From: Planctomycetaceae bacterium
Lineage (GTDB): Bacteria > Planctomycetota > Planctomycetia > Pirellulales > Pirellulaceae
Direction of reading: 5' to 3'
DNA length: 64,000 nt
Assembly: GCA_002724245.1 (NCBI GenBank)
Contig: PBOG01000062.1
Span: forward strand, 1-64,000
Shown here piece by piece: positions 53,808 through 61,795 of this stretch. Both the position numbers and the translations under genes were made by a program. Position 1 is the stretch's first letter. Each line of letters opens with the position of its first letter. The notes beneath the pieces were generated by a model. It worked only from the letters and a program-made list of their open reading frames with translations, was not told the origin of the DNA and did no database searches.

Positions 53808-55250
53808 ATGCTCACCATACAGGGATGTCGACAACGGACGTGCGGCGGGTTGAACCGTCGTGCCTTGTTGCAAGCCGCTGGCAGTGGTCTCTTTGGCGTG
53901 AATCTGTCCACCGTGTTGGCAGCGGAACAGGAGTCCCGGCCTTTCCAGAACGGTCGAGCCAGGTCGGTGTTGTTTCTGTTGCTGTTTGGTGGTCCCAGTC
54001 AACTCGAAACGTTTGACATGAAGCCGTCCGCCCCCGATGACATTCGCGGGCCGTTTCGACCGATCGCATCCCGCACGCCCGGTTTACAAATTTGTGAACA
54101 TCTGTCGCAGACGGCACAGGTTTCCGACAAGTTTGCCGTCGTTCGTTCGATGACGATGCCGTACAACGACCACGGTTGCGTTTTTTACATCCAGACAGGC
54201 CGTCCCCATCCGGCGCGTTTTGGAGCGACACCGGGTGAAACACCGATCGGACCGAACGACCCGCCAGCGATGGGTTCGGTTGTCGAGTATCTGTCTCGTC
54301 ACCATGATCCTGGTCGTGTGGCTGCGTTGCCCGATTATGTCTATTTGCCGAATCGTCTTGGTGCATTGCAGGACATTGATCGTGGTGGACAATACGCAGG
54401 CTGGCTGGGAAGGTCGTATAACGCGCTAGCGACCGACATCCGCAAGCGCAACAAGAATGACAACCCTTATTTTCGCAAGTGCACTGAAGAGGAGCTCGAT
54501 TTCCGTATCAAGGGACTGGCGCCCAAAGTGGACGTGAGTCTTGACCGACTGGCTCAACGGAGTTCGCTGTTGGAGCAGTTTGATCAACAACGCAGGCTGG
54601 TGGATGCCAGTGGTGCGGTCGAATCGTATGACGTGATACGACGTCGTGCCACAGAGTTGGCCACATCCGAACAAATGCGTCTGGCTTTGGATATTCGCCG
54701 CGAGTCGCCCGCGCTGCGCGATCGGTACGGACGCCACTTGTTCGGTCAATCGGTATTGATGGGGCGACGGATGATCGAAGCGGGCTCACGTTTTGTGACC
54801 GTTGCCTGGGACACGCCTGATGGCTACAGCTGGGATTCGCACCGCAATAGCGATGATGTGAAAAAACATCTGATTCCAGGTTTTGATCAAACGTTTTCGG
54901 CGTTGCTGTGCGACCTTGAGGACCGTGGCTTGTTGGATGAGACGCTGGTTGTCGCTGTGGGTGAAATGGGGCGTACCCCGCGGGCGAATAAACAGTGGGG
55001 ACGTGACCATTGGACGGTTTGCTTCCCCGCGGTTCTGGCCGGGGCTGGCATCCGTGGCGGTAGCACCTACGGCAGTTCAGATGCCAAAGCGGCTTATCCG
55101 GACGAGCATCCCACGCGACCGGAAGATCTCTCAGCGACCATCTTTCAGGCTCTGGGCATCGACCCACACATGCGCATTCCGGACCCTCAGGGACGCCCCG
55201 TTCCGCTCGTGGAGAATGGACGCGCCTTGACGTCGGAATTGTTTGGTTGA
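53808..55250 (+). CDS. DUF1501 family protein without a cytochrome partner
   Basis: The 480-residue product has a Tat-like signal (LNRRALLQAAGSGLFGVNL). The DUF1501 core is present ('FGGPSQLETFDMKP', 'HDPGRVAALPDYVYLPNR', 'VGEMGRTPR', 'WGRDHWTVC', 'DLSATIFQALGID'), but this copy belongs to a different subgroup from those at 3918, 13173 and 42320 ('VAVGEMGRTPR' in place of 'WGGEFGRT'). No DUF1549/1553 gene adjoins it on either side. Function unknown. Confidence 0.92.
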   Translation: MLTIQGCRQRTCGGLNRRALLQAAGSGLFGVNLSTVLAAEQESRPFQNGRARSVLFLLLFGGPSQLETFDMKPSAPDDIRGPFRPIASRTPGLQICEHLSQTAQVSDKFAVVRSMTMPYNDHGCVFYIQTGRPHPARFGATPGETPIGPNDPPAMGSVVEYLSRHHDPGRVAALPDYVYLPNRLGALQDIDRGGQYAGWLGRSYNALATDIRKRNKNDNPYFRKCTEEELDFRIKGLAPKVDVSLDRLAQRSSLLEQFDQQRRLVDASGAVESYDVIRRRATELATSEQMRLALDIRRESPALRDRYGRHLFGQSVLMGRRMIEAGSRFVTVAWDTPDGYSWDSHRNSDDVKKHLIPGFDQTFSALLCDLEDRGLLDETLVVAVGEMGRTPRANKQWGRDHWTVCFPAVLAGAGIRGGSTYGSSDAKAAYPDEHPTRPEDLSATIFQALGIDPHMRIPDPQGRPVPLVENGRALTSELFG

Positions 55251-55330
55251 GGGGCTGGTCGCCGTGATACGGTGTGCTGATTTCTGCAAGCTGTCACTGG
55301 AGTTCGTCGATTTCGGTCCGGTGGGCGGGC

Positions 55331-56131
55331 TCAATAGGGCAACATGCCGCCTGAGCAGTTCAGTGTTTGACCGGCGATGTAACTTGCATCATCACTGGCC
55401 AGGTAAACAGCCAGATTGGCCATGTCCTCGGGTCGTTGGATGCGTCCAATCGGAATGGAAGCCACTGCTTCCGCTTTGAATGAGCCTGTGGGGGTGTTGC
55501 TGCGCTGCGTGACCTCGCGGTCGATCAGGTCCCACATCGGTGTGTCGACGATGCCTCCGCAGATGCAGTTCACTAGAATTCCGTCTGCAGCGAGTTCAAC
55601 TCCGAGTTGCTTCGTCAAACCGATCACCGCGTGCTTGCTCATCGCATACAATCCCAGTGGTGTTGCTTTGCCAGGGGCTATTTTTCCTGCGCCGCTGGCG
55701 TTGATGATGATGCGTCCACCGTGTCCCTGTTTGAGCATTTGTCTGGCTGCGATCGTGGCACTGAGAAAGCAGCCCTTGGCGTTGATGGACATCTGACGAT
55801 CAAAGCTCGCTTCGGTTGCCTCGATCAATGGCGCGACCTCACCGGTGCCCGCATTACAGACGATGATGTCGAGTTGGCCGTGCAAGGCAACGGCCTGTGA
55901 AATTGCGTCTTCCGTTTGACTGGACGACGTGACGTCCATGATGTGGAACGAAGCTGAAGTCTCTTTGCGCTGTGCAGCGGTAACGACTAGATCTGCCTGT
56001 CCCGGGGAGATGTCCGTCAAGAGCACTTGGGCGCCTTCAGTGATGAACCGGCTCGCAATGGCCAGCCCGATGCCACGCCCGGCGCCGGTAACGAGCACCG
56101 ACTTGCCTTTGAGTTCTGGATAACTTGCCAC
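55331..56131 (-). CDS. SDR-family NAD-dependent dehydrogenase
   Basis: The 266-residue protein is a classical short-chain dehydrogenase/reductase: TGAGRGIG (15-22) binds the dinucleotide, Asp40 at the end of the second strand favours NAD over NADP, NAG (93-95) stabilises the fold, and the catalytic set is Ser146, Tyr162, Lys166 (YAMSK). It oxidises or reduces a hydroxyl, probably on a sugar or sugar acid given the nearby HpcH aldolase. It follows the VOC gene by 12 bp and ends the three-gene operon. Confidence 0.93.
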   Translation of the reverse strand: MASYPELKGKSVLVTGAGRGIGLAIASRFITEGAQVLLTDISPGQADLVVTAAQRKETSASFHIMDVTSSSQTEDAISQAVALHGQLDIIVCNAGTGEVAPLIEATEASFDRQMSINAKGCFLSATIAARQMLKQGHGGRIIINASGAGKIAPGKATPLGLYAMSKHAVIGLTKQLGVELAADGILVNCICGGIVDTPMWDLIDREVTQRSNTPTGSFKAEAVASIPIGRIQRPEDMANLAVYLASDDASYIAGQTLNCSGGMLPY

Positions 56132-56143
56132 TGTCCACCTCGG

Positions 56144-56593
56144 TTACGCGGAGTATTCTGTCAGTTCGAGTACGTATCCATCTGGATCCAGGAAAAAGAC
56201 ACAACCGATTTTCCCTTCATGTTCCAGGTCAAATTCAACCGGTGCGCTGACGAATTCGACCCCTTTCGCTTGCAACGCATTGTAGGCCTTGCCAATGTCG
56301 TTGACCTCGATGCAGAAATGGCTGTTGGCAATGTCTCCCAGCTTGCTGTCGGATTGTTTTCCGGGAGGCTCGAGGTACTCTTGCAGGTCAATGTGGATGC
56401 CTGGCGTTTCGGGACAGAGTAAGCGGACGACTTTCATTTCGACACGCTCTTTTCCTGCCATTTTTGAGATCGTCTCGCCGGTCAGGTCATGGTCGCTGGC
56501 ACGTACCAGGCCAAGCAGGTCGCAGTAGAACGCGAGTGAGCGTTCCATGTCGCTGACGGTTACCGCGACATGATCGAATTTGACAGCAAACAT
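56144..56593 (-). CDS. VOC-family metalloprotein (glyoxalase/extradiol type)
   Basis: The 149-residue protein has two beta-alpha-beta-beta-beta repeats of the vicinal oxygen chelate fold. The four expected metal ligands are visible: His8 in 'FDHVAVTVSDM', Glu72 in 'DLQEY', His92 in 'SHFCIEV' and Glu143 in 'GYVLELTEYS', so it should bind a divalent metal (Ni, Zn, Mn or Fe). It could be an epimerase, lyase or fosfomycin-like transferase; substrate unknown. It is 11 bp after the Nramp-like gene and 12 bp before the SDR gene. Confidence 0.9.
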   Translation of the reverse strand: MFAVKFDHVAVTVSDMERSLAFYCDLLGLVRASDHDLTGETISKMAGKERVEMKVVRLLCPETPGIHIDLQEYLEPPGKQSDSKLGDIANSHFCIEVNDIGKAYNALQAKGVEFVSAPVEFDLEHEGKIGCVFFLDPDGYVLELTEYSA

Positions 56594-56604
56594 TCATTTC
56601 TCCT

Positions 56605-58506
56605 TTAGAGATAGCCGCTGGCCTGTAACCGGGTCCATGAGAAGATCGTCGCGACGAGCAGAAAAAACAGGCCTGCCAGGAAGAGCGCGATGCGACAAAA
56701 CCAACCGGGACGCAGTTCTTTGGGTAACAAAATCAGATTGACCGCCAACGTGTGCAGGCAAGTAAATCCCAGGGCAAAGTTACTCAGCAGAGCGCTGATG
56801 AACAGGAGTGTCGTTGGTTCTTCAAGCGTCAGCATGATCACACCAAATGCGGCATAAGTCGCCAACACGCCAAAGTAGACGTAGCGAATTGACTTGGGGT
56901 CGAGTCGGCGAGCACGGGGACTGGCGATCCAGATGACATCCACCCAGCGGCGCAAGAATCCATCGGCTCCGGGTGTAACACCGGTTGCCAGCACAATGAA
57001 TGCGCAGAATAGCGATGCCATCCAGAAGAAGTTTCCCCATTGCGCACCGATGTTCTCCCGCAATCCGTTGGCGGTAAACAAAGCTGTCTGCCAGGTGTCG
57101 TCGACAAAGAAACCGCGCGGTAGAAACATGACGGACATCATTGCCGGTAAACCGACACCAACGAAACAACCGGGCATCCAGACCGCCCATTGATCCCGGG
57201 CGACATGCCAGAACCAGCGGCGCCAGCGTACCAATGACTCCGCGGTCGGTTCGAAGACGGTTCCCACGTGTGATAATTGCAGGTGACGCCCGCCAATAAT
57301 ACTGGGAATGGCGCCGACATGTGCGCCCATTCCCCATCCCTGTTCACGGGTGTAGTTGCTGATCGCTGAATTACCGAGCCCACCGTTCCCAGAGATCGCG
57401 ACCAGCGCGCAAAGAAACCCGATGATGGTCATGTCCATGACCGGGAGCTGACGACCCGTCAGCAAAGCGACCAGCACGTTGGCGACGTTTCCGCCGTCGC
57501 GAATACCATCTCCATCGATGTCAACGAACCGATCGAGCTTGCCGTCACCATTGCGGTCGAGAGGGATTTCCTGGTCAGGGGTTCCGTCACCTGTCGTGTC
57601 GCAGGGGAGCACCGTGTCCGCCAGCGAGTCGCCGTCGAGATCAGGCCAGCGAATCGTGTTGCCGTTCTGCTGGACGGAGACCATGCGGTCTGGTTGTCCG
57701 TCGCCGTTAACGTCACTGGCATCGTCTTGCCCGTCGTCGTCTGTGTCAAAAACCAGAGCCAGTGATGGTTCGGCCACATCCAGCCGCTGGTCACCGTCCC
57801 AGTCCTCACCCGCATCAAGAATGCCGTTGCCGTTGACATCCTCCGTGGTGCGAACAGGTACGGTGCCGAATTTAAAGAACCCACTGCCGATTTCGATCCA
57901 GTCCTGACGCGTCGAAAACAGACAGGCCAGAATGATCAGGAAACCCATCACCAGGGTGATTTTTGCGGCCATCAACACCTTGATCGAGTTGTAGATTTTT
58001 CCACCGATGATCAGCGGTACCATGGCCAACAGGAAGATTCCGATCGAAACGGACCGGACGAGGAATTCATCGTCCGGATTTGCTGCTGGATTGGGGATTT
58101 CACCGCGGACCATGGCGACCAGCGGTGGTGCGCCGGCGGCAGCCAGAAAGGGAAAGAACATATAGACGTCAAATAACAGGTAAATGACGAGCCAGAATCG
58201 GGGTCCCGGAAGCGTACGGAACTTGCCTGCGAAGATAGGTTCACCGGTGTACAGCGTGTAGCGGCTGACTTCGACGTTGTAGACGCATTGGCCGAGGATA
58301 CTGAGCGTGGCCAGCCAAAGCAGGCTACCGCCATAGCGGGCAGTGATCACGGGGCCGGTAAGCCACTCTCCACCACCGATCGCAGCGCCGGCCATGAATA
58401 GCCCCGGCCCCAGCATGGTGGCGATGTTTTGCCAACGAAACACCGGTGGATCGGGCAATTCGTTCCGATTCCAAGGCGGCATCTGGGCTGATCCGACGTG
58501 CGGCAT
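56605..58506 (-). CDS. Nramp-family transporter with altered metal-site motifs and an acidic repeat insert
   Basis: GAGG eight bases before ATG 58506 sets the start; residue numbers below count from an in-frame TTG at 58512. The fold matches Nramp transporters (about 11 helices). TM1 reads 'GAAIGGGEWLTGPVITARYG' where Nramp proteins have DPGN, so the Asp/Asn metal ligands are replaced. The canonical TM6 MPH motif is also absent ('GNSAISNYTREQGWGM'). Between TM5 and TM6, residues about 221-341 hold eight Asp-x-[Asp/Asn/Thr]-Gly repeats of the calcium-binding kind (see separate feature). The substrate is therefore uncertain. It is the first gene of the operon with VOC and SDR. Confidence 0.86.
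   Translation of the reverse strand: MPHVGSAQMPPWNRNELPDPPVFRWQNIATMLGPGLFMAGAAIGGGEWLTGPVITARYGGSLLWLATLSILGQCVYNVEVSRYTLYTGEPIFAGKFRTLPGPRFWLVIYLLFDVYMFFPFLAAAGAPPLVAMVRGEIPNPAANPDDEFLVRSVSIGIFLLAMVPLIIGGKIYNSIKVLMAAKITLVMGFLIILACLFSTRQDWIEIGSGFFKFGTVPVRTTEDVNGNGILDAGEDWDGDQRLDVAEPSLALVFDTDDDGQDDASDVNGDGQPDRMVSVQQNGNTIRWPDLDGDSLADTVLPCDTTGDGTPDQEIPLDRNGDGKLDRFVDIDGDGIRDGGNVANVLVALLTGRQLPVMDMTIIGFLCALVAISGNGGLGNSAISNYTREQGWGMGAHVGAIPSIIGGRHLQLSHVGTVFEPTAESLVRWRRWFWHVARDQWAVWMPGCFVGVGLPAMMSVMFLPRGFFVDDTWQTALFTANGLRENIGAQWGNFFWMASLFCAFIVLATGVTPGADGFLRRWVDVIWIASPRARRLDPKSIRYVYFGVLATYAAFGVIMLTLEEPTTLLFISALLSNFALGFTCLHTLAVNLILLPKELRPGWFCRIALFLAGLFFLLVATIFSWTRLQASGYL
57490..57852 (-). repeat. Eight Asp-rich calcium-binding-like repeats inside the Nramp-like gene
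   Basis: The encoded segment (residues 221-341) contains DVNGNGILD, DWDGDQRLD, DTDDDGQDD, DVNGDGQPD, DLDGDSLAD, DTTGDGTPD, DRNGDGKLD and DIDGDGIRD, the pattern of EF-hand, dockerin or thrombospondin type 3 loops that bind calcium. Spacing is irregular (11-24 residues). Confidence 0.8.
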
Positions 58507-58663
58507 GGTCAAAGCCTCGGTAGTCGAACAAGACGGGCACTTCCAGTGGAACGAATCTACCCGCTGGTCAGCGAGAGCGAAAGCGTTTGATTGCCTGCCA
58601 GGCGTTTTTCGTGGACAATTCCTGCATTCACTACCGCATCATAAATAGTCAGGTGACAGAGAC

Positions 58664-59428
58664 GTGCACGATAATACAACCCGCCAGAAGCTGCTGAACG
58701 GTGAGGCGACGATCGGTTCTTTCCTGGGGCTGGGAAGTCCCCATATTGCTGAGATGCTGGGGCACGCCGGATTCGATTGGCTGGTCCTGGAAACTGAGCA
58801 CTCGGCCGTGGAAAGTGAACGTGTAGAGCAGATGATGATGGGTGTCAGCGGCACGGCTGCGACGCCTATCGTTCGTGTGACCCGCGCCGACCCCCTCGAG
58901 ATCGGACGTGTCCTGGATGTGGGCGCTATGGGAGTCCTGGTGCCGATGGTACGGACGGCGCGAGAGGTACACGTCATTGTAGATGCGACCCGGTATCCGC
59001 CGGCGGGGACGCGCGGTTTCGGACCGCTGCGAGCATCCCGGTATGCACTCGATTACGAGGATTATCTGAATCGGGCGAATGACCAGCTGATTGTGGCTGT
59101 GATCATCGAAACGGCTGAAGCGATCGAGAATATTGATGAGATTGCCGCTGTCCCTGGACTCGATGTGATGTTTTTAGGGCTCTATGATCTTTGCCTGTCC
59201 TATGGATTGAATCCGAACCAGATGCCGTACCCGCAAATTGACGATTGCATTGATCGGGTTCTCGAAGCTGGCAAAGCACACCAGGTCGCCGTAGGCACGG
59301 GTGTGGGGTCTCCAGACGATTTACAAAGCCGAGCGCAGCAGGGGTTTCGTTTCTTGAGTTATGGAACGGATTATTTGATGCTGTCCGGTGCTGCGCGAAC
59401 CGGCATTGAAGCATTTCGTAGCCTCTGA
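58664..59428 (+). CDS. HpcH/HpaI-type class II aldolase
   Basis: The 254-residue cytoplasmic protein (GTG start) matches HpcH/HpaI/GarL aldolases. Catalytic His46 in 'LETEHSAV', metal ligands Glu149 in 'VIIETAEAI' and Asp175 in 'GLYDLCLSYG' are in the same positions as in E. coli HpaI. The enzyme splits 4-hydroxy-2-keto acids into pyruvate and an aldehyde with Mn, Mg or Co. The divergent Nramp-VOC-SDR operon shares a 158-bp promoter region, suggesting a joint sugar-acid or aromatic-acid route needing divalent metal. Confidence 0.92.
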   Translation: MHDNTTRQKLLNGEATIGSFLGLGSPHIAEMLGHAGFDWLVLETEHSAVESERVEQMMMGVSGTAATPIVRVTRADPLEIGRVLDVGAMGVLVPMVRTAREVHVIVDATRYPPAGTRGFGPLRASRYALDYEDYLNRANDQLIVAVIIETAEAIENIDEIAAVPGLDVMFLGLYDLCLSYGLNPNQMPYPQIDDCIDRVLEAGKAHQVAVGTGVGSPDDLQSRAQQGFRFLSYGTDYLMLSGAARTGIEAFRSL

Positions 59429-59605
59429 TTCCTGCTGCCATCGCCCAGTCGTCGAGTGGGTGTACAGATCCTCTGTCACCTGCTGACCCGCTGGATCCTT
59501 TGTGCAGGATTGCGCTTCTGGAGCATGTCGTACACCCGGTCGATCTTGACTGGCCGTTGCCGCAACGCGTCAACGCGAAGGCCCACAGGAGCAGAAGAGT
59601 TGGCC

Positions 59606-61795
59606 TTAACGGGGCGTGACCGTCAGGTACATCGGATTCGATGCGTAATTCGTCATAATTGAATAGGTAATGGGCACCCGGGCAAGTGCCGCGATAGGAT
59701 GACGCTTCACTAGCAGCGCCGTGGAGTTTGCTTCCAGCGTAATCTTTGCTTCCAGATCATCGCCCGTCAGCTTGGTTTCGCTACTGGCGGACATGGTGAC
59801 GCCATTGGGTAACTGTTGTCCGTATTTGGTGGTGAAGAAAGAAAAGGCCATGTCGAGTAGCACCTGATCGGAGTACTCACTACTCCGCTGGATGCGAATG
59901 GTGATTTCGGCTGTGCCGCCGCGCGGTAAAGTAATTTCCTTCGGTTCGGCAGTGACTTTGGTCAGGTCGAGTGGTTGGGTTACCGCAAGTAACTGGGTTT
60001 TGATGGGCGCCCGGTAGAAGCGGCTGGCGCCGGCGCGTCGTAGCTCAGCGGTGACGTGGGCATGTCGCACTACGGTGATCGTTTTGTCGTTGGCTCGCGG
60101 AAGTTGGGCATGGCCGCTGATATGTACCAGCGCCGCGTTGATCGGCGCATCGGGAGCCGCGGAGAAAATCAAACTGCAGTGATTCATGCCAGAAGGTATG
60201 GTTACGGGCGTTAATGAGACACCACGAGGAAGTCCAGTCGCCCGGATCTCCACAGCTCCGTCAAACCCATTCAATCGCTTGAGTTTGACGAACCAGATTG
60301 CCTGTCCGCCGGGCGCCAGCATCCCGTAGTAATACTCACCATGGATTTCGAAGTCGGGTCCACTCGGCTCAGCGTTCAAATGATAGGCAAAGCGATCACC
60401 ACTGCGTCCCGTTAGATCGCGTACTGTTACGGTGTAGTCTCCATCAGCAGGTGACTGGAAATACAGTTTGGCATCCTTGGTAAAATAGCTGTCATCGTTA
60501 CTGGCCAGTTCTTGGCCCTGGGAATCCAGCACCTTCAATACACTGTCGACGGCCAGTCCGCGACGTTGTGAATGGACTTCAAAAAGGGAGTACTCCCCCT
60601 TCCGGGAAGAAAAACGGAACGCGTGGGTTTCGTTCGGCCTGGTAAAGGAACCGGAAATTCCCAACGGCAATGAGATCGGATGTGGGGTGTTCGCGGTCAA
60701 TCCAGTTGGCGCTACGATCTGCGGATGGGGGCTGACGAGTAACGCCACTGGATTGGAAGGTCTGCCAGACGCGGTGAGGCCACGCCAGAAATAACTGGCT
60801 GATGGCTGGCCAGGGAGGGCGGCAAGAAGGGTTTCGGGAATCTCGATCGCGTGGTTCTGCGGCGCCCTTGTTGCGGCGGACGGTGGCGTGGTTGCAATCG
60901 CGGGAGTGGAGCCGCTGCCGGAGCTGATGTTTTCCGGGCGGGAGAAGATCAAAGACGGTGTCTGACCGGTTCCATATGCCAACGGCTGACTGCCGTACGC
61001 GAAAGGGTCGTGTGACACTTCCACACAGTAGACGTAACGCGGGTCTCCCGCATAACGTGTATCGCGTACCTCGAGAACATAATCACCCGATTCTGGTAGT
61101 TTGACGTGCAGCATGGCGTCACCACCGATGTAATTGTCGTTTTGGGCGACGATCCGACCGTCTGGTCCGAACAACGTCAGCATCGCGTCCATCAAGTGGA
61201 TTTTGGGATAGCGGATCGCCATCGTGTGGATCGCCCGCGTGACGCGTTGTGCGAAAATCTGACAGACGAGATCCTGTCCGGCGCTGCCGTGGATACGGTA
61301 GTAGTCGACATCCTCGAAGTCTGCGATCGTGCCGCAGATGGCGGTTGGGACTTGGACCGGCTGGGCCATCTGGCGGTTGTCATTGTCAGACGCACCTTCG
61401 ATCGTTACCGGGTGATCCGTGATCAACAGGTGGCCGACACTGGAGACGGATTGGCGCGTCGCGATCCGGTACTCATGCACGCCGGGCCGCTGGTCGTCGG
61501 GGATACGTACACGGAACCGAAACGGTGTTCCGATATCGCCTTCTTCTGGATCCGCCCATTCGTCAGGCTTCTTTTTCGGTTCCGCGAACTCCATCTCGGG
61601 ACCAGCGGGTGCGAAAAAGGCGGAGTGTGATTCGTTCAGAGTAAAATTGGACGACACCTCAATTTCACGGGTGGTGCCGCGCTGTACGGCAACAGGAAAG
61701 GTGCGCGTCAGCTGGCGAAAACTGATTTTTGATTCGGCATACAGCACGGCTGTGCCGTGCAGCAGCAGAAGCAGTGCCAGTGAAAAACGCGTCAT
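59606..61795 (-). CDS. Exported protein with two PPC (pre-peptidase C-terminal) domains
   Basis: The 729-residue product has a signal peptide ending near residue 20. A first PPC domain lies near residues 150-255 ('FEDVDYYRIHGSAGQDLVCQIFAQ', 'GDYVLEVRDTRYAG') and a second near 400-490 ('GEYSLFEVHSQRRGLAVDSVL', 'GDYTVTVRDLTG'). Further beta-sandwich segments follow, one Ig-like near 600. No protease domain is seen. Such proteins in planctomycetes regularly adjoin DUF1501 and DUF1549/1553 genes, as here; a surface-binding role is likely but unproven. 176 bp of apparently non-coding DNA separate it from the aldolase. Confidence 0.85.
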   Translation of the reverse strand: MTRFSLALLLLLHGTAVLYAESKISFRQLTRTFPVAVQRGTTREIEVSSNFTLNESHSAFFAPAGPEMEFAEPKKKPDEWADPEEGDIGTPFRFRVRIPDDQRPGVHEYRIATRQSVSSVGHLLITDHPVTIEGASDNDNRQMAQPVQVPTAICGTIADFEDVDYYRIHGSAGQDLVCQIFAQRVTRAIHTMAIRYPKIHLMDAMLTLFGPDGRIVAQNDNYIGGDAMLHVKLPESGDYVLEVRDTRYAGDPRYVYCVEVSHDPFAYGSQPLAYGTGQTPSLIFSRPENISSGSGSTPAIATTPPSAATRAPQNHAIEIPETLLAALPGQPSASYFWRGLTASGRPSNPVALLVSPHPQIVAPTGLTANTPHPISLPLGISGSFTRPNETHAFRFSSRKGEYSLFEVHSQRRGLAVDSVLKVLDSQGQELASNDDSYFTKDAKLYFQSPADGDYTVTVRDLTGRSGDRFAYHLNAEPSGPDFEIHGEYYYGMLAPGGQAIWFVKLKRLNGFDGAVEIRATGLPRGVSLTPVTIPSGMNHCSLIFSAAPDAPINAALVHISGHAQLPRANDKTITVVRHAHVTAELRRAGASRFYRAPIKTQLLAVTQPLDLTKVTAEPKEITLPRGGTAEITIRIQRSSEYSDQVLLDMAFSFFTTKYGQQLPNGVTMSASSETKLTGDDLEAKITLEANSTALLVKRHPIAALARVPITYSIMTNYASNPMYLTVTPR

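What the first reader, a model, noticed from the sequence alone, without database searches (positions are those of the whole stretch)
56605..58506. Nramp-family transporter without DPGN and with eight calcium-loop-like repeats in an extramembrane insert
The TM1 motif that binds metal in Nramp proteins (DPGN) is GGGE here and the TM6 MPH motif is missing, so it is unlikely to be an ordinary Mn/Fe importer. About 120 residues between TM5 and TM6 carry eight Dx[DNT]GD-type loops typical of calcium-binding dockerin/TSP3 repeats. A Ca-sensing or Ca-structured domain in a transporter of this fold would be unusual. The site could select another substrate or gate transport by external calcium.
Basis: partly seen in the sequence, partly recalled or inferred. 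Interest (0 to 1): 0.7.

Follow-up and report, generated by a model that had tools for sequence, protein, structure and literature searches.

The report
Nramp-related transporter with calcium-loop insert
A bacterial membrane transporter built like the manganese/iron importers has lost their metal-binding site, sits in a sugar-acid-like breakdown gene cluster, and carries outside the membrane a fast-changing array of up to eight calcium-binding-type loops whose role is not known.

Summary
AlphaFold gives a complete Nramp/LeuT fold (pTM 0.84; Z 29.6 to Bacteroides Nramp). TM1 DPGN is replaced by GGGE and TM6 MPH is absent. In 119 relatives from Planctomycetota, Acidobacteriota and Verrucomicrobiota TM1 always reads G[GAST]GEW or AGGEW, so this is a stable subfamily of Nramp-related ('orphan outgroup') proteins, not canonical Nramp. 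The gene forms a three-gene operon with a VOC protein and an SDR, divergent from a GarL/HpaI-like aldolase; relatives sit beside 2-hydroxyacid dehydrogenases, gluconolactonase, 2-oxoacid dehydrogenase, FGGY kinase. Best reading: a carboxylate (probably sugar-acid-derived) symporter whose TM1 GxG replaces the metal site as in AdiC/LAT carriers. The 127-residue TM5-TM6 insert has eight Dx[DNT]xD loops (at most 1 in 20,000 shuffles). Three anchor loops keep EF-hand positions 1/3/5/9/12; the middle loops vary in number. The insert is external by topology, transporter-specific, and changed state at least seven times; same-genus orthologues in the same operon have it or lack it. It is probably a structural, calcium-loaded cap rather than an essential gate. 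Substrate and calcium binding are inferred, not shown.

The parts
56605..58506 (-). Nramp-related transporter, 633 aa, 11 TM, GGGE in TM1
58366..58377 (-). TM1 unwound motif G44-G45-G46-E47, in place of DPGN
57370..57390 (-). TM6 unwound motif GNGGLGN (373-379), in place of the MPH region
   Evidence: exact register inferred
57472..57852 (-). TM5-TM6 extracytoplasmic insert (residues 219-345) with eight calcium-loop-type repeats
57805..57840 (-). anchor loop 1, DVNGNGILDAGE, conserved in homologues with the insert
57769..57804 (-). anchor loop 2, DWDGDQRLDVAE, conserved in homologues with the insert
57487..57522 (-). last anchor loop, DIDGDGIRDGGN
56144..56593 (-). VOC (glyoxalase-fold) protein, second gene of the operon, 11 bp after the transporter, with AGGAG ribosome-binding-like site
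55331..56131 (-). short-chain dehydrogenase, third gene of the operon, 12 bp after VOC
58664..59428 (+). HpcH/HpaI aldolase (best matches GarL and HpaI, below cut-off), divergent; synteny kept in sister species (82% identity)

Best explanation
A secondary transporter of the Nramp-related branch that imports a small organic acid (likely a sugar acid or 2-hydroxy/2-oxo acid) for catabolism by co-transcribed enzymes. Shown: Nramp/LeuT fold (predicted) with broken TM1 and TM6, loss of DPGN and MPH, invariant G[GAST]GEW or AGGEW in TM1, closely spaced gene cluster with VOC and SDR, catabolic neighbourhoods in relatives. Inferred: the backbone amides of G44-G46 bind the substrate carboxylate as the GSG motif does in AdiC/LAT carriers; the invariant E47 takes part in ion or proton coupling or in selectivity. 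The TM5-TM6 insert projects outside the membrane, folds around Ca2+ held in EF-hand-like loops, and acts as a structural cap or docking platform, not as part of the transport site and not as an essential gate.
For: Fold: pTM 0.84; Z 29.6 to Bacteroides Nramp, 29.1 to Deinococcus Nramp, 27.7 to the YcsG model, 23.3 to arginine carrier AdiC. Offsets of the first aligned residues put G44-G46 on Nramp D56-G58 and on AdiC G25-S26-G27 if no gap intervenes. G[GAST]GEW/AGGEW in all 119 homologues, 59 of them found without any motif bias. Gene gaps of 11 and 12 bp with Shine-Dalgarno-like sites. Near/far density in relatives' loci: SDR 3.9x, TPP E1 4.3x, cyclase 13x, FGGY kinase 29x, against DUF1501 0.2x and sulfatase 0.3x. 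Gluconolactonase and D-2-hydroxyacid dehydrogenase next to three genus-level orthologues of a paralogue. Precedent: PxpT and YcsG of the same superfamily are needed for 5-oxoproline use (PMC13274462). GSG in TM1 recognises substrate carboxyl groups (PMC10998858). Insert: three anchor loops in 70-72 of 73 inserts, net charge -8 to -30; ligand positions invariant; positive-inside loops agree with an external TM5-TM6 loop; repeated loss.
Against: No substrate was tested. The neighbouring enzymes differ between subclades, and for most close relatives of the window gene the neighbours are not enzymes of one clear pathway; HpcH/HpaI itself is not enriched near the family (2 near, 4 far). NCBIfam files these proteins as metal transporters, and YcsG has also been reported as a Mn2+ importer (PMC10448178). 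E47 could be a metal ligand. Calcium binding by the insert is inferred from sequence only; the insert model alone has no PDB match.
Confidence: 0.6

Rival explanations
1. It still moves a divalent cation, with E47 replacing the Asp/Asn ligands; the acidic external insert concentrates or senses the cation (Ca2+, Mg2+ or Mn2+).
For: NF037982 names the family a metal transporter; one superfamily member, YcsG, raised cellular Mn when over-expressed (PMC10448178); Nramp-related NRMT proteins move Mg2+ (PMC4072509); the insert has net charge -25.
Against: The Nramp side-chain ligands Asp and Asn are replaced, and MPH with its Met is absent (TM6 register inferred); catabolic operon; no M-box or other Rfam element in 54500-60500; the insert is absent from close orthologues.
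Confidence: 0.17
2. Ca2+ binding to the insert gates transport or senses external calcium.
For: Ligand positions of three loops are invariant in the insert-bearing members; the insert is joined to TM5 and TM6, and TM6 is a mobile helix in LeuT-fold carriers (general knowledge).
Against: At least 7 changes forced on the tree; a same-genus orthologue in the same operon lacks it at 82% core identity; loop number differs between 93%-identical orthologues. Millimolar external calcium would keep such loops loaded (general knowledge).
Confidence: 0.12
3. The protein is a receptor or sensor (transceptor) that has lost transport.
For: Transceptors of the APC fold exist (yeast Ssy1; abstract of PMC12958826); some members stand alone without enzyme neighbours.
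Against: TM core strongly conserved with the unwound TM1 and TM6 intact; no regulator fused or constantly adjacent in the loci examined.
Confidence: 0.06

Closest known systems
Canonical Nramp/SLC11 (MntH, DMT1; e.g. Deinococcus and Bacteroides Nramp)
   Same: Whole 11-TM LeuT fold, Z 28-30 over about 365-385 residues; TM1 aligns by sequence
   Different: DPGN is GGGE, MPH absent, 12% identity, 127-residue external insert
Nramp-related proteins / 'orphan outgroup' (NF037982; B. subtilis YcsG, C. glutamicum PxpT)
   Same: Same NCBIfam model; DPGN and MPH replaced; operon with catabolic enzymes
   Different: Separate subfamily with G[GAST]GEW/AGGEW and longer chains; external insert; substrate unknown
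NRMT magnesium transporters
   Same: Nramp fold (EleNRMT 7qji Z 27.5), altered metal site
   Different: No Mg riboswitch and no MgtE-like neighbour seen; catabolic operon
APC amino-acid carriers (AdiC, LAT1, Asc1)
   Same: LeuT fold; GxG in unwound TM1 at the carboxylate-binding position (inferred equivalence)
   Different: Sequence family, an invariant Glu after GxG, external insert
Dx[DN]xDG calcium-loop proteins (EF-hand, dockerin, TSP3, FG-GAP)
   Same: 12-residue loops with D/N at positions 1,3,5, D at 9 and E/D/N at 12
   Different: No helix-loop-helix in the model, no curated family match, found almost only inside this transporter

Membership tests
Canonical Nramp/SLC11 | DPGN in TM1 | tested here: not met
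   GGGE aligns on DPGN; 0 of 119 homologues have DPGN at that place
Canonical Nramp/SLC11 | MPH in TM6 | tested here: not met
   TM6 GNGGLGN in its place; canonical clade defined by both motifs in PMC10185341
Canonical Nramp/SLC11 | 11-TM LeuT fold with broken TM1 and TM6 | tested here: met
Canonical Nramp/SLC11 | transport of Mn2+/Fe2+ | not testable with these tools
   needs uptake assays
Nramp-related (orphan outgroup) | matches NF037982 above the curated cut-off | tested here: met
   126.4 bits, cut-off 50
Nramp-related (orphan outgroup) | matches PF01566 | tested here: inconclusive
   no hit below E 1 for this protein; paralogues in the genome match
Nramp-related (orphan outgroup) | Nramp fold with other residues at DPGN and MPH | tested here: met
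   description in PMC12873925
NRMT magnesium transporter | M-box riboswitch upstream | tested here: not met
   no Rfam match in 54500-60500; not all NRMTs carry it
EF-hand / Dx[DN]xDG calcium loops | ligand residues at loop positions 1,3,5,9,12 | tested here: met
   invariant or nearly so in three anchor loops of 30 inserts; 70-72 of 73
EF-hand proper | helix-loop-helix | tested here: not met
   model shows strands and loops, no flanking helices; the model was built without Ca2+
Dockerin or TSP3 | curated family match | tested here: inconclusive
   no such Pfam match in 30 inserts at E 0.1; weak EF-hand and FG-GAP matches in some
EF-hand / Dx[DN]xDG calcium loops | calcium binding | not testable with these tools
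   needs titration of the purified insert

The most novel reading that the evidence does not exclude
An Nramp-fold carrier of organic acids whose external multi-loop calcium array tunes opening of TM6, making sugar-acid uptake depend on external Ca2+, with loop number as an evolutionary dial.
Probability: 0.1. Interest if true: 0.8.

Novelty: new variant of a known kind. Interest (0 to 1): 0.52.

Why it matters
Databases call these proteins divalent metal transporters; the evidence says the metal site is gone and many of the genes sit with sugar-acid-type catabolism, so the large Nramp-related group in Planctomycetota is probably mis-annotated. It gives a testable case for how the Nramp metal site and carboxylate-binding GxG sites relate within one fold. 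The insert is a natural experiment: orthologues in one genus and one operon carry no calcium loops or up to about eight.

Tried and rejected
Pfam scan of the transporter: no hit. Fold search of the insert alone: no PDB match at all, so its fold stays open; this is not evidence for a new fold. Global profile alignment to canonical Nramps failed, and the local one was weak (probability 26%) with an unsure TM6 register. Promoter and terminator scan: no more than chance. Literature search for calcium-binding EF-hand loops in Nramp proteins found no paper in the held library. The idea of a mobile calcium cassette shared with other proteins was rejected: 23 of 25 profile hits in 40 relatives lie inside these transporters, and the other two are marginal (own genome only paralogues). 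HpcH/HpaI adjacency as a family trait was rejected: not enriched near the family; it is kept between the window and the sister species.

Full report
What is there. The reported stretch encodes, on the minus strand, a 633-residue membrane protein (58506..56605). NCBIfam NF037982 (Nramp family) matches at E 1.5e-36; Pfam-A gives nothing below E 1. AlphaFold2 on 38 natural homologues gives pTM 0.84 with helices broken at 43-46 (TM1) and 372-379 (TM6), the hallmark of the LeuT/Nramp fold. Structural alignment gives Z 29.6 (363 residues, 2.9 A, 12% identity) to Bacteroides Nramp, 29.1 to Deinococcus Nramp, 28.8 to human NRAMP1, 27.7 to a model of YcsG, and 23.3 to AdiC.

The metal site. The family profile aligns GGGE directly on DPGN, and the fold alignment offset gives the same register (G44 on D56, E47 on N59). 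Canonical Nramps are defined by DPGN and MPH (PMC10185341); both are missing here. In 119 homologues, TM1 is GGGEW (88), GAGEW (14), AGGEW (8), GSGEW (8) or GTGEW (1), and TM6 keeps GxGGxxNxxxSNxxRDxGWG or close variants. The 59 homologues from the first search were found by whole-protein similarity, so the motif is not a search artefact; the later 80 loci were found with a pattern that includes TM1. The window's genome has about ten Nramp-superfamily proteins, and none examined carries DPGN. Among the 30 best PF01566 loci of 60 relatives only three have both DPGN and MPH. So this is an Nramp-related ('orphan outgroup') protein, as described in PMC10606218, PMC4072509 and PMC12873925, and the motif is a stable trait of a subfamily found in Planctomycetota, Acidobacteriota and Verrucomicrobiota (record titles).

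Context. The transporter is the first gene of a likely operon: 11 bp to a VOC protein and 12 bp to a short-chain dehydrogenase, each preceded by a Shine-Dalgarno-like site. Divergent from it lies an HpcH/HpaI aldolase whose best matches are GarL and HpaI, both below cut-off; this gene is kept in the sister species at 82% identity and is followed there by a D-2-hydroxyacid dehydrogenase. In genus-level relatives a paralogue is followed by gluconolactonase and D-2-hydroxyacid dehydrogenase and faces an aldose epimerase-like gene. In other subclades conserved operons hold SDR, TPP-dependent 2-oxoacid dehydrogenase E1, lipoyl E2, a cyclase-family protein, an FGGY kinase, FAA hydrolase and malate/lactate dehydrogenase. 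Density within 3.5 kb versus 3.5-10 kb is 29x for FGGY, 13x for cyclase, 4.3x for E1, 3.9x for SDR, and below 1 for DUF1501 and sulfatase. More distant relatives on plasmids lie beside oxoprolinase subunits, CoA transferase plus thiolase, isocitrate lyase or lactate permease. For most close relatives of the window gene, however, the adjacent genes form no one clear pathway.

How it most likely works. The GxG triplet in unwound TM1 matches, in position, the GSG motif whose backbone amides hold the substrate carboxylate in APC amino-acid carriers (PMC10998858, PMC5983779). With catabolic operons and the precedent of PxpT/YcsG for 5-oxoproline (PMC13274462), the best explanation is uptake of an organic acid. 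YcsG has also been reported to import Mn2+ (PMC10448178), so the metal reading is not excluded. E47, invariant, is the only acidic residue of the unwound TM1 and may serve coupling or selectivity. These last steps are inference.

The insert. Eight loops start at residues 223, 235, 254, 265, 289, 303, 317 and 329; composition-preserving shuffles almost never reach this. In 30 aligned inserts D/N at positions 1 and 3, the acidic positions 5 and 9 and the position-12 acid of the first two loops, and D1/D3/D5/D9 of the last loop, are invariant or nearly so, while the rest varies: selection acts on calcium-ligand positions. Of 73 inserts of this kind 71, 70 and 72 keep the three anchor loops; total loops range from 2 to 8, length 59 to 160 residues, net charge -8 to -30. 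The loop lies between TM5 and TM6, outside the membrane in the Nramp topology; lysine and arginine outside the insert lie mainly in the inside loops. In the own genome and in 40 relatives the insert profile is found almost only in these transporters. The model of the insert shows strands and loops; alone it has no PDB match.

Evolution. On a tree made without the insert columns, the three states (calcium loops, no insert, an unrelated insert of about 145 residues) need 12 changes, at least 7 of them forced by well-supported branches for the calcium insert. One case is very clear: L042 (no insert) and L093/L081 (79- and 127-residue inserts) share the same operon in one genus; core identity is 82%, and L093 and L081 are 93% identical yet differ by 48 insert columns. 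The short linker of L042 (EVVRGENVQNIF) looks like the remnant of a lost insert. An element so easily lost is unlikely to be the substrate site or an essential gate; a calcium-stiffened cap, stabiliser or docking surface fits better. A modulatory effect of calcium remains possible.

Verdict. New variant of a known kind.

Noticed in passing
L054, L066-L078, L162-L167, L171-L180: A recurrent operon (Nramp-related transporter, SDR, TPP E1, lipoyl E2, cyclase-family protein, FGGY kinase, FAA hydrolase, Ldh_2, 2-hydroxyacid dehydrogenase) in planctomycetes, acidobacteria and verrucomicrobia that looks like an undescribed catabolic pathway.
   Followed up: partly
L058-L065, L168, L177, L181-L190: A sister subclade has an unrelated insert of about 145 residues (RADTVIAGRHFTL...KGTVE...) at the same TM5-TM6 site: independent expansion of the same external loop.
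   Followed up: partly
G000 contig C92 (L008): Another Nramp-superfamily paralogue (GSGE in TM1) with a long hydrophilic, coiled-coil-like insert of about 150 residues between two membrane helices.
   Followed up: no
G000 contig C95 (L003): Nramp-superfamily paralogue with GGGSLGG in TM1 and a hydrophilic insert of about 80 residues in its second half.
   Followed up: no
L223, L225-L227: Several PF01566 proteins of planctomycete relatives carry GPGS-type TM1 variants (e.g. VVLGPGSILTSSK) instead of DPGN, another non-canonical Nramp-related group.
   Followed up: no
L195 (Haloarcula pNG700), L193 (Mesobacillus plasmid): Proteins named divalent metal transporters lie directly before two oxoprolinase subunits, or after 3-oxoacid CoA-transferase and thiolase: organic-acid context again.
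   Followed up: partly
window 59606-61795 (-): 729-aa protein with weak PPC-domain match, conserved next to the aldolase in the sister species (72% identity).
   Followed up: no
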